From: a virus
Direction: 5' to 3' (one strand)
Length of the DNA stretch: 64,000 nt
Virus record (IMG/VR): IMGVR_UViG_3300042923_001106
Coordinates: 119,209 to 183,208 of that record
The notes below the pieces were generated by a model. The model was not told where the DNA came from. It did no database searches and saw only the letters and a list, made by a program, of their open reading frames with translations. The first letter of the stretch is position 1. Each line of letters opens with the position of its first letter. A program made the position numbers and the translations under genes. Below are positions 19,865 to 46,346 of this stretch, in pieces.

Positions 19865-20551
19865 ATGAACGACGAATTACAGTCTACAATAATCTTCGAT
19901 ATTTATGAGCGGGTACATATTCCAGACGACTTGCCGTTACTCGCAAAGATTAAACGACACGCTTTGATTCCAGAGATTCAGTACTATCAAGTAGGAGACG
20001 AATATCATCTAAAAGGCAGTCTAAACTTATCACTTTACTACACGGGTATTGATAGTATTATGAATGAAAGAACACAAACCTTTTATCATCAGATCCCACT
20101 GGAAATAACAATACCTATCTCAAGAGGCGTTCCTGAATTCTGGCAAATTGGCACTGTAAATGTAGAACATCTTGGAAACAATATAATAAATGTTACAGGG
20201 ACATTTGAAGTTGATCTTTATACTGAAGAAGAAAGTGTAAAAATAGATAATATAAATAAATTCAAATGTACAAATGAAGAATGTATTGAACTACAACTTA
20301 AACAAAGTGAAGATATGCGCTTGATTTTAAATATTGAAGATGGTATTCGTCATCAATACTATCTTAATGAAGATGGTTCGCTTGAACATTATGATAGTGA
20401 TGGCATGGGACAAGAGATTTATTTACGTTGCAATGTTTGTGGTCAAAAGTATGAATTTGATTCTGATATTGGTCATGTATTTGAGCAACATATCCTGCCA
20501 TTAAATAAATGCGAAATACGGGATATAGGGATTATTAAAATTAGCAGATAG
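19865..20551 (+). CDS. SpoVID/DUF3794-like beta-rich protein with zinc-finger tail
   Basis: The N-terminal 110 residues (DDLPLLAKIKRHALIPEIQY, then DEYHLKGSLNLSLYYTG) resemble the beta-rich N-terminal region of SpoVID and DUF3794 domains, which recruit spore-coat proteins in the host. The C-terminal part holds CTNEEC and CNVCG, a four-Cys zinc site, and a His pair (GHVFEQH). The resemblance is by eye only. If right, it is one of several sporulation-linked genes here. ATG 19865 behind AAAGGAGACG. Confidence 0.5.
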   Translation: MNDELQSTIIFDIYERVHIPDDLPLLAKIKRHALIPEIQYYQVGDEYHLKGSLNLSLYYTGIDSIMNERTQTFYHQIPLEITIPISRGVPEFWQIGTVNVEHLGNNIINVTGTFEVDLYTEEESVKIDNINKFKCTNEECIELQLKQSEDMRLILNIEDGIRHQYYLNEDGSLEHYDSDGMGQEIYLRCNVCGQKYEFDSDIGHVFEQHILPLNKCEIRDIGIIKISR

Positions 20552-24729: not shown

Positions 24730-24872
24730 ATGAAATAGTGGTTTCATTTGGCTTTGAGAGGAGGTGAAGTACTTTATAACTTTTGATTCATTGATAGATA
24801 ATCTCGAATGAATTGCTACGGAAACAAATACGGAGCACTTACAGATTAAATAAGTTTAGAAGGGAAAAGAAA

Positions 24873-26138
24873 ATGAAGTTGCCAAACGTAATTACGAAAC
24901 GTAATGGAACAACAGTTGAATTCAAAACAGATAAAATCACAAACGCTATTAAGAAAGCAGCAGCTCAGACAGGTGAGTTTGACGTTTCCGAGGCAATACG
25001 GTTGACGCAAGGCGTTTTAGAATTAATAAATCACAGTGATTATGACAAATTAACGGTTGAAACTGTGCAGGATTTAGTGGAAGTTGTTTTGTTAGAATCT
25101 AAATATAAATCAACAGCCAAAGCATATATTATCTACCGAGAAAAACGAAAACAAGCAAGGCGAATTGATATTTTCAAACGTCGTTTAAACTTGAAGCCAT
25201 TCGAATATCCAGACCTCACTAAATATAAGGAGGCCGTACAACATTCCTATTGGCTGCACACTGAGTTCAACTATACATCTGACATTCAGGATTATAAGGT
25301 TAATATATCGGATGTTGAGAGAAATATTATTAAAAATGCAATGCTTGCGATTGCTCAGGTTGAGGTCGCAGTTAAAACTTTTTGGGGAGACTTGTATCAT
25401 CGACTCCCAAAGCCGGAACTTGGATCTGTTGGGTATACATTTGCGGAAAGCGAAGTAAGGCATCATGATGCATACTCTCATTTGCTTGAAATATTGGGAC
25501 TGAATGATGAATTTGAGAAGATCGAGAACATCCCCGAATTGTTTCAGCGCATCGACTATTTGACAAAAGGTGTGGCACTAACGCGCACAGGAAACGATAG
25601 GGATTACGCCTTATCTATTCTTTTGTTTTCTCTATTTATTGAACATGTATCGCTATTTTCGCAATTCCTGATTATCATGTCGTTTAATAAGCATAGAAAT
25701 GTTTTTAAGGGAATGTCTAATGTTATTGAGGCAACATCTAAAGAAGAGCAGATTCATGGGTTATTTGGAATAGAACTCATCAATATTATTCGCACAGAGC
25801 ATCCTGAATGGTTTGATAATCGACTAGAACATTTGGTAATTGAAGCGTGTAAGGAATCTTATAAATCGGAGCAAATTGTTATTGACTGGATTTATGAATC
25901 TGGCGACTTGGATTTTTTGCCAAAAGCAACGGTTAAGGAGTTTGTTAAAAATCGTCTGAACAACTCACTTCGCAGCATAGGTTATAACCCAATTTTCGAT
26001 GTGGATGAAAATGCAATAGTAGCAACGGATTGGTTTGACACAGAGATTGTCAGTACAAAACATGTTGATTTCTTTGTGAAACGCTCGATCAATTACAGTA
26101 AACGAACAAAAAGTATTACGGGAGACGATTTATTTTAA
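24873..26138 (+). CDS. nrdB: Ribonucleotide reductase beta subunit with N-terminal ATP-cone
   Basis: Radical-generating subunit of class I RNR. Residues about 1-95 are an ATP-cone (NVITKRNGTTVEFKTDKITN, then VQDLVEVVLLESKYKSTAKAYIIYR), the allosteric activity domain normally on the alpha subunit. The ferritin-like beta fold follows: ligands in SEVRHHDAY (E, H, then Tyr at the radical position), FIEHVSLFS and KEEQIHGLFG. ATP-cones on NrdB are known in a minority of RNRs, where they control beta oligomerisation. ATG 24873 is chosen from GAAGGGAAAAG; the longer frame from 24813 has no Shine-Dalgarno. It is followed at once by nrdA, which lacks the cone. Confidence 0.88.
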   Translation: MKLPNVITKRNGTTVEFKTDKITNAIKKAAAQTGEFDVSEAIRLTQGVLELINHSDYDKLTVETVQDLVEVVLLESKYKSTAKAYIIYREKRKQARRIDIFKRRLNLKPFEYPDLTKYKEAVQHSYWLHTEFNYTSDIQDYKVNISDVERNIIKNAMLAIAQVEVAVKTFWGDLYHRLPKPELGSVGYTFAESEVRHHDAYSHLLEILGLNDEFEKIENIPELFQRIDYLTKGVALTRTGNDRDYALSILLFSLFIEHVSLFSQFLIIMSFNKHRNVFKGMSNVIEATSKEEQIHGLFGIELINIIRTEHPEWFDNRLEHLVIEACKESYKSEQIVIDWIYESGDLDFLPKATVKEFVKNRLNNSLRSIGYNPIFDVDENAIVATDWFDTEIVSTKHVDFFVKRSINYSKRTKSITGDDLF

Positions 26139-26164
26139 TAAAAGACTTGGGGGATATTCATTAC

Positions 26165-27835
26165 ATGAAGTGGTTAAACGAAAATAGTAGAAATTTTTTA
26201 TCACGCGGATATTTAACAGAAGGGGTTACTCCAGAGCAGAGAATTCGTACAATTGCCAATGCCGCAGAATCCATTCTTGGCATTAAGGGATTTGCAGATA
26301 AATTTTATGAATATATTGAAAAGGGATATTATTCGCTATCCACGCCAGTATGGTCTAATTTCGGAATAAACAAAGGACTCCCTATCAGTTGCTTTGGATC
26401 ATTTTTGTCAGACAGTATGGGGAGTATTCTATATACACAGTCTGAAGTTGGAATGATGAGTAAATTTGGCGGAGGTACTTCCGGTTATTTTGGTGATTTG
26501 CGTCATCGTGGAGCACCTATAAAGGATAACGGGCAATCATCAGGCTCTGTACATTTTATGAAATTATTCGAGTCAACCATGGATGTAGTAAGTCAGGGCA
26601 GTACGCGCAGAGGTAGATTCTCTCCATATTTACCAATTGACCATCCAGATATTGAAGAGTTTTTGAAGATTGGTACTGAAGGTGATCCAATTCAAGAATT
26701 GACGCACGGAGTTACTGTTAAGGATAAATGGATGAAAGAAATGATCGCAGGAGATGTTGAGAAACGCGCATTATGGGCTAAGGTTATTCAGCGTCGTGTT
26801 GAGATTGGATATCCATATATTCTTTTTGAAGATACGGTCAATAAAAATACAGTAGATGTTTATAAAGATAAAGAATTAAAGATTAAACAGAGCAACTTAT
26901 GCAGTGAAATAGCATTACCAAACAACGACAAAGAATCATTTGTATGCAACCTATCGTCTATGAATTTATTGTATTATGACGAATGGAAAGAAACAGACGC
27001 TGTTGAAACGATGGTATTTTTCCTAGATGCGGTCATGACCGATTTCCTAAATAAACTCGAACAAATGCGAGATTCTGATAAAAAAGAAGATAAACTTGCG
27101 TTTTATTTTATGGAGAGGGCATATAATTTTGCAAAAGCGCACCGTGCATTAGGATTAGGAGCATTAGGATGGCACTCCTATCTCCAATCTAAAATGATCC
27201 CCTTCGAAAGCTTGGATGCATCTAAACTAAATTCACGCATATTTAGTTTTATTCAAACAAGGGCACATAAGGCTTCGATGGAATTGGCGAATCTTTATGG
27301 GGAACCTGAATTATTAAAGGGTTACGGTCGCCGTAATACAACATTGACTGCGATTGCACCGACAACATCTTCTGCCTTTATTTTAGGGCAAGTTTCACAA
27401 AGTATTGAACCCATTTGGTCAAATTGCTATGTAAAAGATGTTGCAAAGATGAAAGTCACAATTCAAAATACACAATTAAAGAAAGTCTTGCAGTTCTACG
27501 ACAAAGACACTCGGGAAGTGTGGAATAGTATTCGAGATAATGACGGTTCCGTGCAGCATCTTGAATTTCTAAACGACAATGAAAAAGAAGTATTCAAAAC
27601 ATTTAGCGAAATTGACCAGTATGTTATTTTAGATCAGGCTTCTACCCGACAACTATTTTTAGATCAAAGCCAATCATTAAATCTAATGGTCAATCCCAAA
27701 ATGCCAGCCAAGCAGATTAACGAATTATATTTGTTTGCTTGGGAGAACAATGTTAAAACACTATATTACCAACATAGTACAAATGCGGCTCAACAATTCA
27801 GTAAGGATAAGTTATGCGTCAATTGTGAAGCGTAA
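26165..27835 (+). CDS. nrdA: Ribonucleotide reductase alpha subunit (class I, no ATP-cone)
   Basis: Reduces ribonucleotides to deoxyribonucleotides with the neighbouring beta subunit. Active-site landmarks: SCFGSFLSDS (Cys about 75), NLCSEIALP (thiyl Cys about 245), FVCNLSSMN (second redox Cys), KTLYYQ (radical-transfer Tyr pair) and a C-terminal CVNC. At about 556 residues it lacks the N-terminal ATP-cone; that domain sits on beta instead. It begins with the region just before the barrel. ATG 26165 is used; TTG 26147 lies in the TTGGGGGAT Shine-Dalgarno region. No intein or intron interrupts it, unlike the SPbeta gene. Confidence 0.88.
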   Translation: MKWLNENSRNFLSRGYLTEGVTPEQRIRTIANAAESILGIKGFADKFYEYIEKGYYSLSTPVWSNFGINKGLPISCFGSFLSDSMGSILYTQSEVGMMSKFGGGTSGYFGDLRHRGAPIKDNGQSSGSVHFMKLFESTMDVVSQGSTRRGRFSPYLPIDHPDIEEFLKIGTEGDPIQELTHGVTVKDKWMKEMIAGDVEKRALWAKVIQRRVEIGYPYILFEDTVNKNTVDVYKDKELKIKQSNLCSEIALPNNDKESFVCNLSSMNLLYYDEWKETDAVETMVFFLDAVMTDFLNKLEQMRDSDKKEDKLAFYFMERAYNFAKAHRALGLGALGWHSYLQSKMIPFESLDASKLNSRIFSFIQTRAHKASMELANLYGEPELLKGYGRRNTTLTAIAPTTSSAFILGQVSQSIEPIWSNCYVKDVAKMKVTIQNTQLKKVLQFYDKDTREVWNSIRDNDGSVQHLEFLNDNEKEVFKTFSEIDQYVILDQASTRQLFLDQSQSLNLMVNPKMPAKQINELYLFAWENNVKTLYYQHSTNAAQQFSKDKLCVNCEA

Positions 27836-27876
27836 TGGTTTTTCATTAGACAATATAAAAAGGGAGATATCATCGG

Positions 27877-28494
27877 ATGTTTCAATTAGAAGATAAAGTA
27901 TATATTACACAAGAAAAAACAACGGGAGTAATTAAAGAATATAATTCCGAATCAGAAGAGTATTTCATTACATATTTTCCAAAAAACACTCCAAAAAAAC
28001 GTAAAAAAGATTGGTTTAAACCTAGTCAAATTCGTAAGTTTAAAAAGCCTTTGGAGATTAAAGTAAAATATTTTTCTGATATTGAAAAGATAGAAAAGAT
28101 CTCTCAAGGTGACTGGATCGATCTTCGAGCTGCTGAAACTGTAGAACTTAAAGCAGGAGAATTTAAACTTATCCCACTTGGTATTGGTATGAAACTTCCA
28201 AAAGGATATGAAGCAAATCCCGTTCCTCGTTCTAGTACATTTAAAAACTGGGGAATTATCCAAACAAACTCCTTCGGAGTAATTGATAATTCTTATTCTG
28301 GAGATGATGACCAATGGTTTTTCCCGGCTTATGCTACTCGTGATACCGTTATTGAAAAGAATAGTCGAATTTGTCAGTTCCGTATTAATCGAGTTCAACC
28401 GAAAATTCAATTTACTGTAGTCCAAAATCTTGATGAGATATCTCGCGGTGGATTTGGATCAACTGGTAAAACTGACCTACCTCAATCTCGTTAA
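27877..28494 (+). CDS. dut: dUTPase with an N-terminal Tudor/KOW-like extension
   Basis: Hydrolyses dUTP to dUMP and pyrophosphate, feeding ThyX and keeping uracil out of DNA. Trimeric dUTPase motifs: DLRAAE (motif 1), [12 protein letters not shown] (2), [10 protein letters not shown] (3), RICQFRI (4) and GGFGSTG (5). The first 65 residues are not part of the family: [24 protein letters not shown] and [10 protein letters not shown] look like a small beta-barrel (KOW/Tudor-like), an unusual fusion. ATG 27877 after AAAGGGAGAT. Linked to thyX by a terminator-containing gap. Confidence 0.85.
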
Positions 28495-28563
28495 TACTAC
28501 GTTTTACTCGTTTTCTCTAATGCTAATATCAGATAAAATTGTTCTTTCATTGGCTAATTTTAT

Positions 28564-28592
28564 GGGCAGTAGTTTTGTCTACTGTCCTTTTT
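28564..28592 (+). terminator. Rho-independent terminator between dut and thyX
   Basis: GGGCAGTAG (28564-28572) and CTACTGTCC (28579-28587) form a 9-base stem with one G-U pair and a 6-base loop, followed by TTTTT. It ends the nrdB-nrdA-dut unit; readthrough into thyX is possible. Confidence 0.75.
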
Positions 28593-28615
28593 AATCTAAA
28601 ATAAGGGAGAATAAA

Positions 28616-29377
28616 ATGAACACAAACACGCTGAAAGTTTTGAATAAAGGTTACGTTACGTTGGTAGATTCTATGGGATCAGATTTGTCTGTTGTAAATA
28701 GCGCTCGTTGTTCGTACATGAAAAAATCTGACGAATTAACCGATAAAGATATTCGACTCATCAAATTTCTAGCTAGGGAAGGACATCTATCCCCGTTCAG
28801 ACATGCGGTTCTGCAATTTGAACTGTACACTCCTTTACTCGTAGCCAGACAGTGGTTTAAATATCGAATTGGCTCCGCCCATTCAGAGGATACTGCAAAC
28901 AATGACGAAGTGATTTTTACAAATAACGGAGATGACGATGGATTTGGCGATCCAATTCATGGCCGGAATGAAGCCAGTCGTAGATATATTACATTGACTC
29001 CAGAATTTTATATTCCATTGCCTAACGAATGGCGTAGTAAGCCAGAGAACAGTAAACAGGGTAGCGGAGATAACTTGTCTGAAACAACAGGAAAACTTCT
29101 TACCGAGGTGCTTATCAATCAAATTGATGAGGGTATAAAGAATTATGAATGGGCACTAGGACAAGGTGTTGCACCTGAACAAGCAAGATTGTTTATTCCA
29201 TCTGCTTACGGACTTTATACGGCATGGTACTGGACGACGAGTTTACAGGGTGTATGTCATTTTCTAGAACAACGACTAGAACACGATGCTCAATCTGAAA
29301 TTCGCGATTATGCAAGAGCAGTATATTATTTAGCAAAACAAAAATTCCCTGTTTCGATAGAAGAATTAATAAAATAA
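28616..29377 (+). CDS. thyX: Flavin-dependent thymidylate synthase
   Basis: Makes dTMP from dUMP with FAD and methylenetetrahydrofolate. ThyX landmarks: LSPFRHAVLQFEL, RQWFKYRIGSAHSED and, further on, NEASRRY, which together make the ThyX motif; and RLFIPSAYGLYTAWYWTTSLQ with HFLEQRLEHDAQSEIRDYA at the end. Compared with typical ThyX, about 25 residues (NNDEVIFTNNGDDDGFGDP...) are inserted between the two halves of the motif. ATG 28616 behind AAGGGAG. Confidence 0.87.
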   Translation: MNTNTLKVLNKGYVTLVDSMGSDLSVVNSARCSYMKKSDELTDKDIRLIKFLAREGHLSPFRHAVLQFELYTPLLVARQWFKYRIGSAHSEDTANNDEVIFTNNGDDDGFGDPIHGRNEASRRYITLTPEFYIPLPNEWRSKPENSKQGSGDNLSETTGKLLTEVLINQIDEGIKNYEWALGQGVAPEQARLFIPSAYGLYTAWYWTTSLQGVCHFLEQRLEHDAQSEIRDYARAVYYLAKQKFPVSIEELIK

Positions 29378-29870: not shown

Positions 29871-30461
29871 GTGTTGATAATCCGAACACTGGTTGTACTG
29901 TGTTTATACATTGCACTAATCATTACCGAATTGCTTACATTCAACAAATACACCATTGTCCTTGGACCCATTGTCATATTCACATTGCTTATCAATAGAT
30001 ATCTTGACGAAATTAAACGAACAGACATAAACAAACTTCTTAAAGATAAAAGCATTTGGAAATGGTCATGGTACATTACCGTTTATGCATTGATTTCACA
30101 ATGGGTAGCAAATGAAATAACTCAACACGGTCTCAACATTAAACCTCCAGATATCAACTTTGCGTACACTATTGTCGCGGCACCAATTGTATCTGTAATG
30201 TTTTCATCCGTTATCGAAGAAGTGATATTTCGAAAAATAATATTCACATATTTGGATAAGAAATTCAACTTTTACATTGCAGCAATCATCAGTTCAGCAT
30301 TATTCGCTTTAGGACACTATAATTACGCAGGTTGGCTAGGTTACTTTGTCCTTGGGCTGTTCTGGTGTTGGATTTATAAGAAGACTGGCAATATAACGAT
30401 ATCAATTTTGTCACATACATACTATAATTTATTCTCATTCATTATGTTAACTGTGAGGTGA
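29871..30461 (+). CDS. CPBP-family intramembrane metalloprotease
   Basis: Multi-pass membrane protein (at least five hydrophobic helices) with the three CPBP motifs: EEVIFRK (EExxxR, about residues 115-121), FALGH (FxxxH) and SHTYYN (HxxxN-like). CPBP proteases act in membranes, e.g. in CAAX processing or bacteriocin self-immunity. In a phage it could act in exclusion, lysogeny or host signalling (inference). GTG 29871 behind ATTGGG; start is moderately sure. Confidence 0.8.
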   Translation: MLIIRTLVVLCLYIALIITELLTFNKYTIVLGPIVIFTLLINRYLDEIKRTDINKLLKDKSIWKWSWYITVYALISQWVANEITQHGLNIKPPDINFAYTIVAAPIVSVMFSSVIEEVIFRKIIFTYLDKKFNFYIAAIISSALFALGHYNYAGWLGYFVLGLFWCWIYKKTGNITISILSHTYYNLFSFIMLTVR

Positions 30462-30710: not shown

Positions 30711-31250
30711 ATGAAAGAAATATCAAAGTGTACCTACGAAGATAATGTTCAAGAAATTCTCAAGTCTGTATTACCAGATGATATTAGTATCGAAAATATA
30801 GTTTTTGTCTGCATCGGAACAGATAGGTCTACAGGAGATTCCCTTGGCCCGTTGGTTGGCACATATCTTCAGTCAATGGGATACTCGAATGTATATGGAA
30901 CAGTTGATGAACCCGTTCATGCTCTAAACATTGAAGAAGTGATGGAAACTATTCCAAAAGATAAGACTATAATTGGGATTGACTCCTCCCTCGGAGACCA
31001 CAACATCGTTGGCAGAATTAGAGCGTTTAAGGGTTCAATCAAACCCGGAGCAGGAGTAGGAAAAGAACTGATGCCAGTTGGAGATTATTCGATTAGCGCT
31101 GTTGTTAATGTGGGAGGTTTTATGGAATATTTTGTTCTTCAAAATACAAGACTTTCGCTTGTAATGAAATTGGCTAGTTGGATTGTAAATGGTATAAGTA
31201 AAAGAATACCCGCAATGGAATCATTAGAAGTAGCTGCTTCAAAACAATAA
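30711..31250 (+). CDS. YyaC-like spore protease homologue (DUF1256)
   Basis: Matches the YyaC/DUF1256 family, related to the germination protease GPR: VFVCIGTDRSTGDSLGPLVG, then IIGIDSSLGDHNIVGRIRAF, KPGAGVGKELMPVGDYSISA. The two acidic motifs (GTDRSTGD and IDSSLG) are the family's catalytic region. Host members are sporulation-expressed. A phage copy points to action on spore or mother-cell proteins, but the target is unknown. ATG 30711 behind TAGGAGAG. It lies near a membrane protease. Confidence 0.78.
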   Translation: MKEISKCTYEDNVQEILKSVLPDDISIENIVFVCIGTDRSTGDSLGPLVGTYLQSMGYSNVYGTVDEPVHALNIEEVMETIPKDKTIIGIDSSLGDHNIVGRIRAFKGSIKPGAGVGKELMPVGDYSISAVVNVGGFMEYFVLQNTRLSLVMKLASWIVNGISKRIPAMESLEVAASKQ

Positions 31251-32479: not shown

Positions 32480-33598
32480 TTGAGCAAGTTTGAATTGAGT
32501 TTATCCAAGGATTATGTTCCATCTTGGACCGTAGTCGATGCAGTTAGAGAACTATTTCAAAATGCTCTCGACCAACAGACAACTGTTGAAGATAATGTAA
32601 TGTTCTTTAACTATGATCAAAATACCCACACTCTATACATAGGTAATAAATCATCAGTACTAAGCGCAAAGACATTGCTGCTAGGTACGTCAACGAAGCG
32701 AGATGATCCTAATACGATTGGTCAATTCGGAGAAGGTTATAAAATCGCTACTCTTGTTTTAACCCGTCTAAACAAGAAAGTGACGTTCTACAACTATGGA
32801 GCAAAGGAAGTCTGGAATCCTCGGTTTGTGAAGTCTAAGCGATACGAGGGAGAGGAGATTCTAACATTCTTCGTTGACAAGAAGTTCATTTGGCAGAAGG
32901 TTCCCGACAATAATCTGACTATAACCATCGAGGATATTAATCCTCATGAATATGAGCAAGTTGTTGAGTCTAATCTTCACTGTCAGGATGTTGGGGAGAT
33001 AATTGAGACTTCTGCGGGAAGAATCCTATTAGATCCCAGACATGCTAAAAAGGTCTTCGTAAATGGTCTCTTTGTATGCGGAAATCGTGAATATACATAC
33101 GGTTATGATTTCAAACCAAAGGAATTGAAGATAGACCGTGACAGAAAACTTGCAGATAACTTTGAACTCAAATGGTTAGCATCAAAGATGTGCGCTCAGG
33201 TTCAGGATCATGATATTGTTGTTGAATTGATTCGTCAAGACGCGGCTGATATCGCATTCATCTCCTCGATGAACATGTACGCCGACAACCAAACCAAGCA
33301 GAGAAACCTTGGTGCTATCGCGGATAAGACCTATGGGCGATTTATAGAGGAACACGGCGAAAATGCTGTACCTGTGACAACTCAAGAAGAGTTTGACAAA
33401 GTGAAGAAGCAATACAAGCCTGTCATTGTTTCATCTTCATACGCTTCAATGGTTAAGAAAAGCGACATGTATAAGGCTCCAAGAGTAAAGAGGCAGACAA
33501 CAAAAGATAAGTTAGAAGAATGGTATAGGAACAATAAGAAAAACCTGTCCAGTAAAGCATCTAGAAAGTTGAAAAAAATTATTGATGAAATGCAATAA
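32480..33598 (+). CDS. GHKL-fold ATPase (histidine kinase/Hsp90/MutL-like)
   Basis: The N-terminal domain carries the N-box ELFQNALDQ (residues 24-32) and the lid motif GQFGEGYKIA (81-90) of GHKL ATPases; the G1 motif is degenerate (YIGNKSS). Residues 100-260 are a second mixed domain with VFVNGLFVCGN, seen in related phage and bacterial proteins. The C-terminus is basic and helical. No kinase or topoisomerase catalytic part is present. Possible roles include chaperone-like or anti-defence activity (inference). TTG 32480 follows TTGGAGGTTAGGAG. Confidence 0.72.
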   Translation: MSKFELSLSKDYVPSWTVVDAVRELFQNALDQQTTVEDNVMFFNYDQNTHTLYIGNKSSVLSAKTLLLGTSTKRDDPNTIGQFGEGYKIATLVLTRLNKKVTFYNYGAKEVWNPRFVKSKRYEGEEILTFFVDKKFIWQKVPDNNLTITIEDINPHEYEQVVESNLHCQDVGEIIETSAGRILLDPRHAKKVFVNGLFVCGNREYTYGYDFKPKELKIDRDRKLADNFELKWLASKMCAQVQDHDIVVELIRQDAADIAFISSMNMYADNQTKQRNLGAIADKTYGRFIEEHGENAVPVTTQEEFDKVKKQYKPVIVSSSYASMVKKSDMYKAPRVKRQTTKDKLEEWYRNNKKNLSSKASRKLKKIIDEMQ

Positions 33599-34377: not shown

Positions 34378-34755
34378 ATGAATTTGAAACAGTTTTCAAC
34401 TAAAGGCATACATATCATGGTAGATGCATATGGCATTAAACCTGAACTATTAGATAACATCCACTATCTTCATCAGTTAGGCAAAATCGCTATTGCAAAG
34501 TCAGGAGCCTCATTCGTAGATATGGTAGTAAAGAAATTTAGTCCATATGGCTGCACTCTTCTATTTCTACTCGAAGAAAGTCATATTAGTTTTCATACTT
34601 TTATAGAAAATTTAGATGATTTGGAAAGATCATATATAGCCATTGATGCTTTCACATGTTCGTCCGCCGATCCTGAACTTGCAATCAATTACATAGTTGA
34701 ACAATTAAAACCAAAAGAAGTATACAAACAACATATTGTAAGAGGTGTCCGATAA
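34378..34755 (+). CDS. speD: S-adenosylmethionine decarboxylase-family proenzyme (SpeD-like)
   Basis: Pyruvoyl-dependent decarboxylase that self-cleaves at a Glu-Ser bond. Landmarks: KGIHIMVDAYG near the start, VVKKFSPYGC, the self-processing EESHISFHT (Ser68 becomes the pyruvoyl, His73 follows) and the late Cys in AIDAFTC; the end IVRGVR is typical. Size (125 residues) fits the bacterial class. A 6-residue insertion lies between the processing site and the Cys strand. Product would be decarboxylated SAM for polyamines, though relatives can decarboxylate ornithine or arginine instead. ATG 34378 or GTG 34372 follows AAAGG. Confidence 0.82.
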   Translation: MNLKQFSTKGIHIMVDAYGIKPELLDNIHYLHQLGKIAIAKSGASFVDMVVKKFSPYGCTLLFLLEESHISFHTFIENLDDLERSYIAIDAFTCSSADPELAINYIVEQLKPKEVYKQHIVRGVR

Positions 34756-34979
34756 TGAAATATGGGAGTGTAGTGAAGAACAAAGTAACAGGTGAATACG
34801 GTACTTGTCACTATAGCACATTCGGTGCATCTATACATACATACGATGAAATCGAGAATTTGTTAACTAAGACTCTGGGCGATTCATTGGAAAATGTCAT
34901 GAAACATTGGGAAGTTTGCGAAATGCCAGAAGGTTACGAGTGGAGTGAAAGCAATATCTATATTAGGAGAATACATTAA
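34755..34979 (+). CDS. Hypothetical protein (74 aa)
   Basis: ATG 34755 overlaps the AdoMet decarboxylase stop (ATAATG), behind AGAGGTG, so translation is coupled. Beta start KYGSVVKNKVTGEYGTCHYS, then a helix and EGYEWSESNIYIRRIH. Unknown; its coupling to speD hints at a related role. Confidence 0.58.
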   Translation: MKYGSVVKNKVTGEYGTCHYSTFGASIHTYDEIENLLTKTLGDSLENVMKHWEVCEMPEGYEWSESNIYIRRIH

Positions 34980-35113
34980 TGTCACGTGATCAGTATGATG
35001 TTGAAGTTGAGAAGCAACGCACGATACAGGAATCGGTTAGTAAGATCTTCTGGATTGCATTTACCTTCCTCATTGTAGGGGGATGTACTGCAACAGAGAT
35101 ATGGGGTAAATAA
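34979..35113 (+). CDS. Small single-TM membrane protein (44 aa)
   Basis: ATG 34979 overlaps the upstream stop. Charged N-terminal helix (SRDQYDVEVEKQRTIQESVS), then a transmembrane helix (KIFWIAFTFLIVGG) and a short tail. Unknown function. Confidence 0.58.
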   Translation: MSRDQYDVEVEKQRTIQESVSKIFWIAFTFLIVGGCTATEIWGK

Positions 35114-40464: not shown

Positions 40465-43400
40465 TTGCGATACAATAACTATCATAAACATACCCATTAC
40501 AGTAACATCGTCACACCTGACTGTATTGTTAAACCGATAGATTACGCAAAGCGAGCAATCGAATTGGGTCACACTACGATTTGTACAACTGAGCATGGCT
40601 ATGCTGGGAATGTATTTGAATATTATGATGTAACTAAACAGCATAACCTTAAACTTATCTTTGGAGTAGAATTTTACTATGTCAACGACCGCTTTGAAAA
40701 GGACAAATCGAATACTCACTTAATGATTCTTGCTAAGAATAATGAAGGTAAACGAGAGTTAACTAGACTTATTACGGAATCGAACAAGACTGGATTTTAT
40801 TATAAGCCTCGTATAGACAAACAATTAGTGATGGGTCTAAATCCTGAAAATGTTCTAGTTACATCCACTTGTATAATCAGTTATGTGGGCAAATGTGAAG
40901 ACTACGAACAGAACTTTGTATTGCCATTTATGAATCACTTTAAGTGTAACTTCCTGCTGGAGATTCATGATAATGCCCATAGAATGCAAGTAAACTATAA
41001 TAAAAAAATCCTTGCCTTACATGAGAAATATAATATTCCCTTAATTCACGCTACTGATTCTCATTACATATATCCTGAGCAGGATAAGGATCGAACACAG
41101 TTCTTGAATGGTAAGAATATTTACTATGAAGAAGAAGAAGGATTCATACTTGATTATCCTGATTCTGAAACAATCTTTAAACGGTATGAAGAGCAGGGTG
41201 TTTTCACAAAAGAACAAGTGGAGCAATCTTTAAATAACACCCTGCTCCTCGATGATTTTGAAAATATCAAAATGGACAAAGAAATAAAGATGCCATCAAT
41301 TTACCCGAATTGGTCGCATGAACAAAAGGTTAAAAAACTAAAAGAAATAATCACAGAGGAATGGAAAAAGGACAAAAAAGAAATCAATCCAAAACGTGTC
41401 GGTGAATATCTTGATGCAATTCGATTTGAAACAAAAATTATTGAAGATACATCAATGGAAGATTACTTTTTGCTCAATTATGATATCATCAAACGGGCAA
41501 AAGAGAACGGAGGGATATTGACTCGTACAGGTCGAGGATCGGCACCGAGTTTTTACATAAATAAACTCCTTGGCTTTACAGAAATTGACCGATTAGAAGC
41601 ACCAGTAACACTTTATCCAACTCGATTTATGAGTACATCTCGTATTCTTGAATCTAAAAGTTTGCCAGATATCGATTTTAATACATCTCAACCTGAAGCA
41701 TTTATTAAAGCAGCCATAGAGATACTTGGTGAAGATAATGTTTATTACATGACAGCTTACGGTACAATGCAAGCAAGCGAGGCGTTCAGAAACTATTGTA
41801 GAGCTATTAACTTAAAAATGGACGATTACAATGATGTCGGAAAAAATCTTGACCAGTATAGGAATGATGATAAATGGAAAGACATTATCAAAGAATCAGA
41901 GAAGTTTATAGATGTTATTGATAGCGTTTCTCCACATCCTTGTGCGTTTATCCTATTGTCTCAACCTGTATCTGAAGAGATAGGAATTATTAGAGTTGGA
42001 AGTAAAGAGAAGGTTAACTTTTGTGCATTGATAGACAGTACTACATCTGACTCTTGGAAATATCTGAAGAATGACTTTCTCACAGTAAGTGTATGGGAAA
42101 TTATCGCTAACACTTATAAGATGATTGGAATTCCAATACATAATATTCGTGAATTATCTCGCTTAGTTGAAAGTGATAAGCGAGTTTGGGATTTGTATGA
42201 AAATGGATTAACTGTTACACTCAATCAAACAGGAACGGATTCAGGGACACCTCAAGTTATGCAATATAAACCTAAGAATGTACGAGAATTAACTGGTTGG
42301 GTCAGCGCAATTCGACCATCATTCGTATCTATGAAGCATTACTTTTTAAATAGACAAGAATTCTCATACGGGATTAAAGAACTCGATGACCTTTTAATCG
42401 AAAGTGACAACTTTATTTTATACCAAGAGAATATAATGCGTGTTCTTGTGTGGGTAGGGTTCCCCGAAGATGAAACATACGGGCTATTAAAAGCCATCGC
42501 CAAAAAGAAAGAAGGAATCATTGAACCGATTTATGAGCGGTTTATTGATGGTTTCGTAGAGAAGACAAATAGCGAAGAGAACGCCGAGTTAGTTTGGAAG
42601 ATAATAGAGAATTCTGTGGACTATGGTTTTAACTCTTCGCATGCTTACTCTGTAGCATTGGACAGTCTTTATGGAGCATACCTTAAGGTAAATTACCCAC
42701 TTGAATATTTTACAGTAATACTTACGAAATACGAGGATGACACAGAGACAACAAGTAAAATTTTTAAAGAATTACCATACTTCAGTATAAGTATATCACC
42801 AATCAAATTCAGACAATCAAAAGCACATTATTCACCTAATAAAGAAAAAAATACAATTTACAAAGGCATTAAAAGTGTTAAATATCTGAATGAGAAGATT
42901 GCCGAGGAGTTGTTTGAACTTGGCAAAAAACATTATGATTCATTCATTGATTTACTCATTGATATTACCGAGAGCACATCGGTAAATACAAGGCAACTTG
43001 ATATTTTGATAAAACTGAACTTTTTTTCTGAATTTGGTCAAAACAATGAATTGTTGCAAATATACAATGAATTTACGTCAATGTACAAAAAAACATACGT
43101 TGAGAAAACAAAAGTAAAACGGATAGGAGAGTTAAGGCAACGAGAAGATGAGATTCGAAATATGTTACAAGATAAAACTTTACCTATTCACGAATCCATC
43201 ATGTTCCAGAAAGAAATGCTTGGGTATGCTGATTTAAGGTTTCCAAACTCTAAAGATTGGTTTGTTATCGTTGATATCGATAAAAAGTATACTCCTAGAC
43301 TAACCGTATATGAATTATTAACCGGCGAAGAAAAATCAATCAAAGTAGAGAAGAAGAAATTCTTCATCGGAAATGGAGAAACCTTAAAAATAGGTGATAC

Positions 43401-43515
43401 AGTCAAGATTACTCAGTCAGAGATGAGACCGAAGAGCAAACTTGTAGATGGAAAATGGGTTAAATCTGAAGATCAGTTTGATGAGTGGTTGGTGTCGTGC
43501 TCAATCAAGAGATAG
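40465..43515 (+). CDS. dnaE: DnaE-type DNA polymerase III alpha subunit
   Basis: C-family replicative polymerase, SPbeta YorL-like. Domains: PHP at residues 1-200 (YHKHTHYSN, TTEHGY, FGVEFYY), then the palm with GRGSAPSFYINKLLG (about 357), the catalytic PDIDFN (about 400) and a third Asp in LKNDFLTVSV (about 534); SHAYSVALDSLYGAYLKVNYP is the fingers helix-hairpin region near 720. At 1016 residues it is shorter than bacterial DnaE and has a compact C-terminus. TTG 40465 behind GAAGGAGGTAGAAAA. A promoter and the homing endonuclease gene precede it. Confidence 0.9.
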   Translation: MRYNNYHKHTHYSNIVTPDCIVKPIDYAKRAIELGHTTICTTEHGYAGNVFEYYDVTKQHNLKLIFGVEFYYVNDRFEKDKSNTHLMILAKNNEGKRELTRLITESNKTGFYYKPRIDKQLVMGLNPENVLVTSTCIISYVGKCEDYEQNFVLPFMNHFKCNFLLEIHDNAHRMQVNYNKKILALHEKYNIPLIHATDSHYIYPEQDKDRTQFLNGKNIYYEEEEGFILDYPDSETIFKRYEEQGVFTKEQVEQSLNNTLLLDDFENIKMDKEIKMPSIYPNWSHEQKVKKLKEIITEEWKKDKKEINPKRVGEYLDAIRFETKIIEDTSMEDYFLLNYDIIKRAKENGGILTRTGRGSAPSFYINKLLGFTEIDRLEAPVTLYPTRFMSTSRILESKSLPDIDFNTSQPEAFIKAAIEILGEDNVYYMTAYGTMQASEAFRNYCRAINLKMDDYNDVGKNLDQYRNDDKWKDIIKESEKFIDVIDSVSPHPCAFILLSQPVSEEIGIIRVGSKEKVNFCALIDSTTSDSWKYLKNDFLTVSVWEIIANTYKMIGIPIHNIRELSRLVESDKRVWDLYENGLTVTLNQTGTDSGTPQVMQYKPKNVRELTGWVSAIRPSFVSMKHYFLNRQEFSYGIKELDDLLIESDNFILYQENIMRVLVWVGFPEDETYGLLKAIAKKKEGIIEPIYERFIDGFVEKTNSEENAELVWKIIENSVDYGFNSSHAYSVALDSLYGAYLKVNYPLEYFTVILTKYEDDTETTSKIFKELPYFSISISPIKFRQSKAHYSPNKEKNTIYKGIKSVKYLNEKIAEELFELGKKHYDSFIDLLIDITESTSVNTRQLDILIKLNFFSEFGQNNELLQIYNEFTSMYKKTYVEKTKVKRIGELRQREDEIRNMLQDKTLPIHESIMFQKEMLGYADLRFPNSKDWFVIVDIDKKYTPRLTVYELLTGEEKSIKVEKKKFFIGNGETLKIGDTVKITQSEMRPKSKLVDGKWVKSEDQFDEWLVSCSIKR

Positions 43516-44726: not shown

Positions 44727-44746
44727 GCATATGTGCTTTTTCTTGT
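44718..44746 (+). terminator. Rho-independent terminator ending the replication block
   Basis: AGCACATA (44718-44725) and TATGTGCT (44730-44737) with a GGCA loop, followed by TTTTCTTGTT. The stop codon of the preceding small gene is inside the stem. It separates the replication genes from the recombinase gene. Confidence 0.82.
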
Positions 44747-44764
44747 TCCTGTTGATATTCTACA

Positions 44765-44794
44765 TTTACTCATAAATATTGAGTGGTGTATAAT
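44765..44794 (+). promoter_or_regulatory. Putative promoter for the serine recombinase
   Basis: TTTACT (44765-44770), an 18-base spacer and TATAAT (44789-44794), just after the terminator and about 47 bases before the recombinase start. Confidence 0.6.
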
Positions 44795-44840
44795 GGTAAT
44801 TAATATGTTTCATAAAAAACAACAAGGAGGCACTGAAGTT

Positions 44841-46346
44841 GTGTCGCAATACACTGTAAAATATGTAGCAATATATGTACGAAAATCTAGAGGCGATTTA
44901 GAGCACGATTTGGCAAAGCATCTAGCAGAACTAATCAAGCTGTGTGAAGAAAATAACTGGACTTATGCAGTTTACAGTGAAATAGGAACATCTGATTCCA
45001 TTGAATTACGCCCTGTTATGAGCGAATTGTTGTCAGATGTTGAACTTGGCATGTTCGATGCCGTCTGCGCGGTTCACATCGACCGTTTGAGTCGTGGTGA
45101 TGCAGTGGATAGAGCCAAGATACAGAAAATTTTGGGGAAGACAGAAACCTTATTAATAACTCCTCAAAGAGTATATGATTTCACAAACGAGACTGATTTG
45201 CTTATGGCTGAATTTGAAGGCTTAATGGCTCGGATGGAGTACAAACAAACATCAAGAAGGTTTAAGCAAGGAAAAGCACGAAATGCAAAATTGGGATTCT
45301 GGTCAAATGGAAAACCGCCGTATCCATATTATCGAGACAGTGAAAAAAAGAAAGCCGTTGTAAATCCAGATTATCGACCAGTATACAGAAGAATGGTCGA
45401 CTTGTGTATGCAGGGTTGGACATTTACAGATATTGCGTGGGAGCTAAACAAATTAGCCATTCTTTCACCCAAGGGTGGAATGTGGAGTCATGTAGTAGTT
45501 GGTAATTTGCTTCAGGATGAAGTTCATCTAGGACATATTGTGGTAGGAAAAACAACAAAAACGGCTACCGGAGATAAGATTCACAGAGAAAAGGAAAAAT
45601 GGATTGTATACAAAAATTGTCATGAAGCCGTAAAGACGCAAGAAGAGCACGATAAAATTATTTTTTTAACAAACAGAAATAAAAGATCGAGTAAGGCCAG
45701 TAGAGCAGGTAAGCAAGTATTTTCTGGATTACTTTATTGCGCCTGTTGTAGTAAAGCGATGCAAATTCAAAAGCAAAAGAACAGACCAAATGACTCAGTA
45801 CGATCTTGTAGAACGCATGATGCTTTTGGAGTCAGATGTATTAATTTAGGCGGAAGTGTTACAGCAATAAATGAAGTAATTTATAATGCACTAATAAAGA
45901 AGAAAGAATATTTAATTAAAGCAATCAATGAAGGAATATCAGATGATGATACTAATGAACTTCAACAGATTGCATCAACTAAGTTGAAAGAAATAAAACT
46001 CCATGAAAAAAGAATTGAGAAAATTTATCGTAATCAAGAAAGTATGCTGTACTCAGAAGAAGAAGATGAGAACGATGCAATATTCCGTGAAAGATTAAAA
46101 AAAGCAAAAGAAGAATTAAAGCTACTTGAGGACGAGTATACTTCTTTGTCCACCCAAATTGAACGAGCACTCGACACAAGGAACGAAGATTTACTTCTAA
46201 ATATTGAGGACGTTTTGAAACTACTCAACAAGCCATCAATCGAAGATAAAGAAAAAAATCGTGCATTGAAAAGTATCATTAACAGGATAGAGTGGAAAAG
46301 ATTAAGGATTGATGAACAGCCGACAATATATGTAAATTTTCTTTAG
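44841..46346 (+). CDS. Large serine recombinase (SprA-like integrase)
   Basis: Integrates and excises the phage. The resolvase domain has the catalytic Ser16 in YVRKSRGD, then DSIELRPVMSELL and HIDRLSRGD; it resembles SPbeta SprA. The recombinase domain follows (LGFWSNGKPPYPY), then a zinc ribbon (LLYCACCSKAMQ...CRTH...C) and a C-terminal coiled coil (residues about 385-470). 501 residues is normal. GTG 44841 is used (AAGGAGG at 44824-44830); ATGs from 44733 lie in the promoter. It has its own terminator-promoter arrangement, and inverted repeats follow directly. Confidence 0.85.
   Translation: MSQYTVKYVAIYVRKSRGDLEHDLAKHLAELIKLCEENNWTYAVYSEIGTSDSIELRPVMSELLSDVELGMFDAVCAVHIDRLSRGDAVDRAKIQKILGKTETLLITPQRVYDFTNETDLLMAEFEGLMARMEYKQTSRRFKQGKARNAKLGFWSNGKPPYPYYRDSEKKKAVVNPDYRPVYRRMVDLCMQGWTFTDIAWELNKLAILSPKGGMWSHVVVGNLLQDEVHLGHIVVGKTTKTATGDKIHREKEKWIVYKNCHEAVKTQEEHDKIIFLTNRNKRSSKASRAGKQVFSGLLYCACCSKAMQIQKQKNRPNDSVRSCRTHDAFGVRCINLGGSVTAINEVIYNALIKKKEYLIKAINEGISDDDTNELQQIASTKLKEIKLHEKRIEKIYRNQESMLYSEEEDENDAIFRERLKKAKEELKLLEDEYTSLSTQIERALDTRNEDLLLNIEDVLKLLNKPSIEDKEKNRALKSIINRIEWKRLRIDEQPTIYVNFL

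What the first reader, a model, noticed from the sequence alone, without database searches (positions are those of the whole stretch)
34378..34979. Phage AdoMet decarboxylase coupled to a small unknown gene
A SpeD-family enzyme is rare in phages. It may feed polyamine synthesis (DNA packaging), or drain SAM and so blunt methylation-dependent host defence; relatives can instead decarboxylate other amino acids.
Basis: partly seen in the sequence, partly recalled or inferred. Interest (0 to 1): 0.65.

Follow-up and report, generated by a model that had tools for sequence, protein, structure and literature searches.

The report
Phage-encoded SpeD-type decarboxylase
A large virus that probably infects a spore-forming bacterium carries one small, apparently working enzyme gene of a kind already known in other phages, most likely used to push the host's own spermidine production, followed by a tiny gene that has no known relatives.

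Summary
Window 34378-34755 (+) encodes a 125-aa class 1b SpeD (Pfam AdoMet_dc, E=1.8e-26). The AlphaFold2 model (pLDDT 94) matches Thermotoga maritima AdoMetDC 1TLU at TM 0.83/0.89. All self-processing and catalytic residues are present (Ser68, His73, Cys94). 34755-34979 is a coding 74-aa gene overlapping the speD stop by one base; it is an orphan, and the pairing is not conserved, so the "coupling" is only tight operon packing. Phage SpeD is not rare: at least 133 GenBank phage records and over 580 IMG/VR stretches, with published functional tests of several. It is unusual in phages of Bacillota, which this probably is (Geobacillus virus E3-like polymerase; spore genes). The record has no SpeE, ODC, ADC or agmatinase, so the enzyme would lean on the host. 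Trees and motifs place it with AdoMetDCs, outside the known arginine/ornithine decarboxylases. Caveat: the substrate loop is remodelled (F-H-T-F-I-E, near-invariant proline lost, six-residue insert), resembling both a validated AdoMetDC (phiYS40) and the Vampirovibrionia SpeD2 group, one member of which is a validated arginine decarboxylase. I put AdoMetDC at about 0.67 and a substrate switch at about 0.2. SAM depletion as counter-defence is unsupported.

The parts
34378..34755 (+). speD: class 1b S-adenosylmethionine decarboxylase homologue, 125 aa; predicted self-cleavage between Glu67 and Ser68
   Evidence: Pfam PF02675 1.8e-26; PHROG 3125; AlphaFold2 pLDDT 93.9, pTM 0.87; Foldseek 1TLU TM 0.83/0.89, rmsd 1.4; trees
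34576..34659 (+). Catalytic core, residues 67-94: E67-S68-H69-I70-S71-F72-H73-T74-F75-I76-E77 ... C94. Pyruvoyl Ser68, His73 and Cys94 are kept; the proline at His+3 is replaced by Ile76; six-residue insert at 78-83
   Evidence: alignments A1 and A3; motif count over 188 SpeD-family proteins
34755..34979 (+). Small 74-aa gene of unknown function, one-base stop/start overlap with speD
   Evidence: codon usage and SD sequence; no relatives in Pfam, none in IMG/VR or GenBank phages; best PHROG match only E=0.025; single-sequence model pLDDT 72 with no fold match
34979..35113 (+). Next small ORF, 44 aa, also overlapping by one base: continuation of the packed operon
   Evidence: codon usage
24813..29377 (+). 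Nucleotide metabolism block: two ribonucleotide reductase genes, dUTPase, ThyX
   Evidence: PHROG and Pfam
40465..43515 (+). DNA polymerase III alpha (DnaE), 66% identical to Geobacillus virus E3; a DnaE-type gene lies directly after speD in four related phage contigs
17544..18056 (+). Dam-like DNA adenine methyltransferase (a SAM user; bears on the SAM-depletion idea)
   Evidence: Pfam PF05869 5.4e-12

Best explanation
The gene encodes a working class 1b S-adenosylmethionine decarboxylase. The 125-aa proenzyme folds like T. maritima SpeD, cleaves itself between Glu67 and Ser68, and turns Ser68 into the pyruvoyl cofactor; two processed protomers build two active sites. It converts AdoMet to decarboxylated AdoMet. 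Having no aminopropyltransferase of its own, the phage relies on the host's SpeE and host putrescine to make spermidine from it. The gene is expressed in an operon region with nucleotide and replication genes and raises flux through a rate-limiting step of host spermidine synthesis while phage DNA and proteins are being made. Shown here: family, fold, conserved residues, genomic setting, absence of the other pathway enzymes in the record, placement with AdoMetDCs. Inferred: self-processing, substrate, timing of expression, host SpeE use, benefit.
For: Family and fold. Residues equivalent to T. maritima S63, H68 and C83, named as essential in PMC10407285, are S68, H73 and C94. The AdoMetDC motif F-x-P-x-G-x-[ST] (F54-P56-G58-T60) is present, whereas it is missing in confirmed ADC HTVC201P and in SpeD2/speB-linked ADC-like groups. 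The acidic residue at His+4 (E77) and T-C rather than S-C-K are AdoMetDC-type. The four ornithine-decarboxylase diagnostic residues (Gln, Thr, Phe, Tyr), which I located from Spirochaetota second copies (Q-L-I-E-T-S..H-F..Y), are absent (F63, E67, T74, A88). Trees: the branch separating AdoMetDCs (with the window protein) from all ADC/ODC-like groups has support 99/92 and 100/99; adding the window protein alone to the ADC/ODC side is rejected, p-AU 0.021. Four other phage SpeDs restored spermidine in E. coli lacking speD (PMC9992855). No Spermine_synth, arginase/agmatinase or PLP-decarboxylase family in the 183-kb record, and no match over the Spermine_synth cut-off in 46 other phage contigs with SpeD.
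Against: Substrate loop remodelled: Ile76 instead of a proline that 183 of 188 family members keep. Of the four others without it, one is a proven ADC, two are ADC-like and one (phiYS40) is a proven AdoMetDC. The window's F-H-T-F-I-E resembles F-H-S-F-[IVT]-E of Vampirovibrionia SpeD2 proteins. When the window protein and L012 are moved together to the ADC/ODC side the tree is not rejected (p-AU 0.15 and 0.24). Host SpeE is assumed, not seen. No activity data.
Confidence: 0.67

Rival explanations
1. Substrate-switched SpeD: the window/L012 lineage has become a pyruvoyl-dependent arginine decarboxylase (SpeDA-like), or less likely another amino acid decarboxylase. It would feed agmatine and then putrescine, independently of the known switches.
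For: F-H-T-F-I-E loop like Vampirovibrionia SpeD2 (whose relative in V. chlorellavorus is a proven ADC), loss of the near-invariant proline, six-residue insert directly after the residue equivalent to the ribose-binding Glu; L012 has the insert too, with Asp at His+4. Published: ADC activity arose at least three times from SpeD, once from a close paralogue, so tree position alone cannot exclude it.
Against: F-x-P-x-G motif and T-C motif are AdoMetDC-type; ornithine diagnostic residues absent; strong separating branch; phiYS40, a proven AdoMetDC, has the same kind of loop (W-H-Y-W-I-D).
Confidence: 0.2
2. SAM-depleting counter-defence: the enzyme drains SAM so that host methylation-dependent defence fails.
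For: AdoMet is the expected substrate; phages do use SAM-degrading enzymes (T3 SAM lyase type, PMC7877911, found).
Against: The phage has its own Dam-like methylase needing SAM. Nothing seen links the gene to a counter-defence cluster. Known phage SAM lyases are a different family.
Confidence: 0.04
3. Degenerate or non-catalytic SpeD: a relic, or a regulator binding host SpeD as trypanosome prozyme does.
For: Loop divergence from the family.
Against: Every processing and catalytic residue is intact, the frame is open, codon usage is phage-like, and the model is confident over the active-site strands.
Confidence: 0.06
4. speD and the 74-aa gene form a functional two-gene module (the small protein modulates SpeD).
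For: One-base stop/start overlap; both are coding.
Against: The next ORF has the same overlap. No relatives of the small gene were found, and relatives of SpeD have DnaE, ThyX, dUTPase or unrelated small genes downstream.
Confidence: 0.03

Closest known systems
Class 1b AdoMetDC/SpeD (T. maritima TM0655, PDB 1TLU/1VR7; Aquifex 2III)
   Same: Fold (TM 0.83/0.89), pyruvoyl Ser, His, Cys, F-x-P-x-G-x-[ST], Glu at His+4
   Different: 34-35% identity, Ile for Pro at His+3, aromatic residue before the catalytic His, six-residue insert after Glu77
SpeD of IMG/VR phage L012 (154,759-base contig)
   Same: 52% identity, same insert position, same S-F-H
   Different: Keeps the Pro, has Asp at His+4; lies directly upstream of a divergent DnaE
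SpeD of Bacillus phage vB_BcoS-136 (Kenyattavirus)
   Same: 38% identity, a phage of a Bacillota host, tightly packed small-gene operon
   Different: Annotated as 357 aa with an SH3/KOW-like N-terminal part and a 160-aa C-terminal extension; canonical H-T-Y-P-E loop
Paenibacillaceae SpeD (e.g. Cohnella L191)
   Same: About 36-41% identity; near the phage group in both trees
   Different: Cellular gene (the Cohnella genome also has spermidine synthase homologues); canonical loop
Thermus phage phiYS40 SpeD (validated AdoMetDC)
   Same: Phage enzyme with aromatic-His-x-aromatic-Ile-acid loop
   Different: Very divergent (22% identity); lacks the insert
SpeDA/SpeDC (HTVC201P ADC; Vampirovibrionia SpeD2; Spirochaetota second copies)
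   Same: Same fold family; the loop F-H-[ST]-F-I-E is shared with some Vampirovibrionia SpeD2
   Different: They lack F-x-P-x-G, mostly have S-C-K, and fall on the other side of a strongly supported branch

Membership tests
Class 1b AdoMetDC/SpeD family (PF02675) | Profile match over the curated cut-off, full length | tested here: met
   93 bits against 25, profile 1-107 of 107
Class 1b AdoMetDC/SpeD family (PF02675) | AdoMetDC fold | tested here: met
   Best five PDB matches are T. maritima and Aquifex AdoMetDC, E 4e-12 to 4e-11
Class 1b AdoMetDC/SpeD family (PF02675) | Self-processing Ser, His, Cys (T. maritima S63, H68, C83) | tested here: met
   S68, H73, C94 (roles from PMC10407285)
Class 1b AdoMetDC/SpeD family (PF02675) | Self-cleavage to a pyruvoyl enzyme | not testable with these tools
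   needs protein
Bona fide AdoMetDC (substrate AdoMet) | The proline that the literature says is fully conserved in AdoMetDCs but not ADCs | tested here: inconclusive
   The paper's figure position is not readable here. The F-x-P-x-G proline is present (P56); the His+3 proline is absent (I76), as in validated AdoMetDC phiYS40 and in ADCs
Bona fide AdoMetDC (substrate AdoMet) | Groups with AdoMetDCs in a tree | tested here: met
   100/99 branch; alternative placement rejected for the window alone (p 0.021), not for window plus L012 (p 0.24)
Bona fide AdoMetDC (substrate AdoMet) | Activity on AdoMet | not testable with these tools
   needs assay
SpeDC ornithine decarboxylase | Diagnostic Gln, Thr, Phe, Tyr | tested here: not met
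   F63, E67, T74, A88 at those positions; positions inferred from Spirochaetota second copies
SpeDA arginine decarboxylase | Clusters with proven or speB-linked ADC-like proteins | tested here: not met
SpeDA arginine decarboxylase | Activity on arginine | not testable with these tools
   needs assay

The most novel reading that the evidence does not exclude
The window/L012 phage lineage is an independent, phage-born substrate switch of SpeD, achieved by rebuilding the loop after the catalytic His (aromatic before His, loss of the near-invariant proline, six-residue insert) while keeping the rest of the AdoMetDC scaffold. This would contradict the published view that such switches arose in bacteria and were then captured by phages.
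Probability: 0.17. Interest if true: 0.5.

Novelty: new member of a known kind. Interest (0 to 1): 0.27.

Why it matters
It extends phage-encoded spermidine-pathway enzymes, characterised so far mainly from cyanophages, pelagiphages and a few other groups, to a large phage of probably spore-forming Bacillota. It offers a clean test case for which residues set SpeD substrate: a scaffold that looks like AdoMetDC with a loop that looks like some arginine decarboxylases. The repeated position of speD beside phage replication genes suggests that the enzyme serves genome replication rather than photosynthesis-specific needs.

Tried and rejected
Relatives of the 74-aa gene: none in IMG/VR, GenBank phages or Pfam, only an insignificant PHROG match, and no fold match. 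A wider polyamine pathway in the phage: SpeE, arginase/agmatinase, and both PLP ornithine/arginine decarboxylase families are absent from the 183-kb record, though the record may be incomplete. The conserved 'diagnostic proline' as a simple test: ambiguous, because two prolines could be meant and the figure is not available. Relatives of the host could not be drawn for a virus record. A second, loop-lineage search found only one further copy of the L012 SpeD.

Full report
What is there. ORF 34378-34755 (+) encodes a 125-aa protein and ORF 34755-34979 (+) a 74-aa protein; stop and start overlap by one base (TAATG). Both are preceded by Shine-Dalgarno-like sequences and show phage-like codon usage in frame only; none of 258 ATG-started out-of-frame ORFs inside the phage's large genes reaches 74 codons. 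The next ORF (34979-35113) overlaps in the same way, so the whole stretch is a packed operon without terminator-like sites or an above-chance number of promoter-like sites.

The enzyme. Pfam AdoMet_dc matches over its full length, E=1.8e-26; PHROG 3125, S-adenosylmethionine decarboxylase, 2.4e-24. The closest solved structures are Aquifex 2III and T. maritima 1VR7/1TLU. An AlphaFold2 model from 41 aligned relatives has mean pLDDT 93.9, and Foldseek returns T. maritima and Aquifex AdoMetDC as the top five PDB hits, TM 0.83/0.89 to 1TLU. The residues named in PMC10407285 as essential for self-processing and catalysis in T. maritima (S63, H68, C83) are S68, H73 and C94. From my own knowledge of the T. 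maritima and human enzymes, F54, T60 and E77 correspond to the adenine-stacking Phe, the processing Ser/Thr and the ribose-binding Glu.

Phage and host setting. The window is part of a 183,208-base IMG/VR virus record whose completeness is not given. Its DnaE is 66% identical to Geobacillus virus E3 and 62% to a Psychrobacillus phage. A DUF1256 spore-protease-like gene at 30711-31250 is 52% identical to a Paenibacillus larvae phage gene, and a weak SpoVID-N-like match lies at 19865-20551, below the Pfam cut-off. A spore-forming Bacillota host is therefore likely. speD lies between the ribonucleotide reductase/dUTPase/ThyX block and DnaE. In four related phage contigs (L002, L012, L017, L020) a DnaE-type gene follows speD; in L013 it is thyX, in L085 dUTPase. 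Several cyanophage hits also touch sliding clamp or clamp loader annotations. The immediate neighbour changes but a replication setting recurs.

How common. speD has been listed as a sporadic cyanophage gene since at least 2010 (PMC3037559). PMC9992855 showed that SpeDs of S-PM2, phiYS40, phiN3 and P2559S restore spermidine in E. coli, while those of HTVC201P and five environmental phages decarboxylate arginine or ornithine.

Which substrate. Spirochaetota carry a second SpeD with Q-L-I-E-T-S..H-F..Y, which fits the four ornithine-decarboxylase diagnostic residues described in PMC10407285. Vampirovibrionia carry a second SpeD of the kind proven to be an arginine decarboxylase in V. chlorellavorus. 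Several DPANN SpeDs stand beside speB. The window protein lacks all four ornithine residues and keeps F-x-P-x-G-x-[ST] and D-x-F-T-C. In two trees it groups with phage L012 (99/95; 99/97), with other phage and Paenibacillaceae SpeDs nearby, on the AdoMetDC side of a strongly supported branch (99/92; 100/99). Forcing it alone into the ADC/ODC side is rejected (p-AU 0.021); forcing it together with L012 is not (0.15 and 0.24).

The caveat. Directly after the catalytic His the window reads F-H-T-F-I-E followed by a six-residue insert shared in position with L012. Only 5 of 188 family members with the S-H-x-x-x-H motif lack the proline at His+3: the window, the proven ADC HTVC201P, two ADC-like proteins and the proven AdoMetDC phiYS40. 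Vampirovibrionia SpeD2 mostly reads F-H-S-F-[IVT]-E and phiYS40 reads W-H-Y-W-I-D. The loop is thus compatible with either activity. I give AdoMetDC 0.67 and a substrate switch 0.2.

Role. The record holds no spermidine synthase, arginase/agmatinase or PLP decarboxylase family, and none of 46 other SpeD-bearing phage contigs has a spermidine synthase over the family cut-off (many of these contigs are fragments). Phage SpeD therefore appears to act as a single added step on a host pathway. The SAM-depletion idea is weak: the phage itself carries a Dam-like methylase.

The small gene. No relative of the 74-aa protein was found; a single-sequence model is of middling confidence (pLDDT 72) and matches nothing. 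Its link to speD is not conserved, and its function is open.

Verdict. A real, intact, ordinary-kind phage SpeD in a less usual host group, with one interesting structural deviation that makes substrate testing worthwhile.

Noticed in passing
L011 = MW495066.1 245252-251569 (Microcystis phage MaAM05 / PhiMa05): This published jumbo phage record carries speD-speD2-speE-speB, and the 6.3-kb stretch aligns end to end at 85% DNA identity with a 2.8-Mb Vampirovibrionia genome. At least this part looks like bacterial DNA, although SpeD was discussed as a phage gene in PMC8093824.
   Followed up: partly
L003 5767-6840 (Bacillus phage vB_BcoS-136): SpeD annotated as one 357-aa ORF with an SH3/KOW-like N-terminal part and a 160-aa C-terminal extension of unknown function.
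   Followed up: no
L005 1606-3273 (MT839461.1, 'Bacteriophage sp.' from human faeces): 555-aa ORF with a methyltransferase-like, possibly branched-polyamine-synthase-like (BpsA) N-terminal part (by eye) fused to a canonical SpeD; neighbouring ORFs look bacterial, so the record may not be phage.
   Followed up: no
window 30711-31250 and 19865-20551: Phage-encoded spore-related genes: DUF1256 spore-protease-like (E 6.5e-53) and a weak SpoVID-N-like domain below its Pfam cut-off.
   Followed up: partly
window 29871-30461: Rce1-like CAAX prenyl endopeptidase family membrane protein in a phage (PF02517, 1.4e-20).
   Followed up: no
window 32480-33598: 372-aa protein of PHROG 6077 (unknown function, E 7e-93) whose N-terminus looks like a GHKL ATPase (D-A-V-R-E-L-F-Q-N-A-L-D) by eye.
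   Followed up: no
window 44733-46346: Large serine recombinase (integrase), suggesting a temperate lifestyle.
   Followed up: no
L095 2146-7539 (Cohnella sp. CFH 77786): A second, non-housekeeping SpeD in a cluster with nucleotidyltransferase-, dehydrogenase-, CDP-alcohol transferase- and aminotransferase-like genes and an oppositely oriented spermidine-synthase-like gene (identified by eye): possibly a biosynthetic cluster using decarboxylated SAM.
   Followed up: no
Spirochaetota loci L137, L149, L157: Ornithine-decarboxylase-like SpeD2 domains at the C-terminus of about 290-335-aa proteins whose N-terminal part resembles a SET domain by eye.
   Followed up: no
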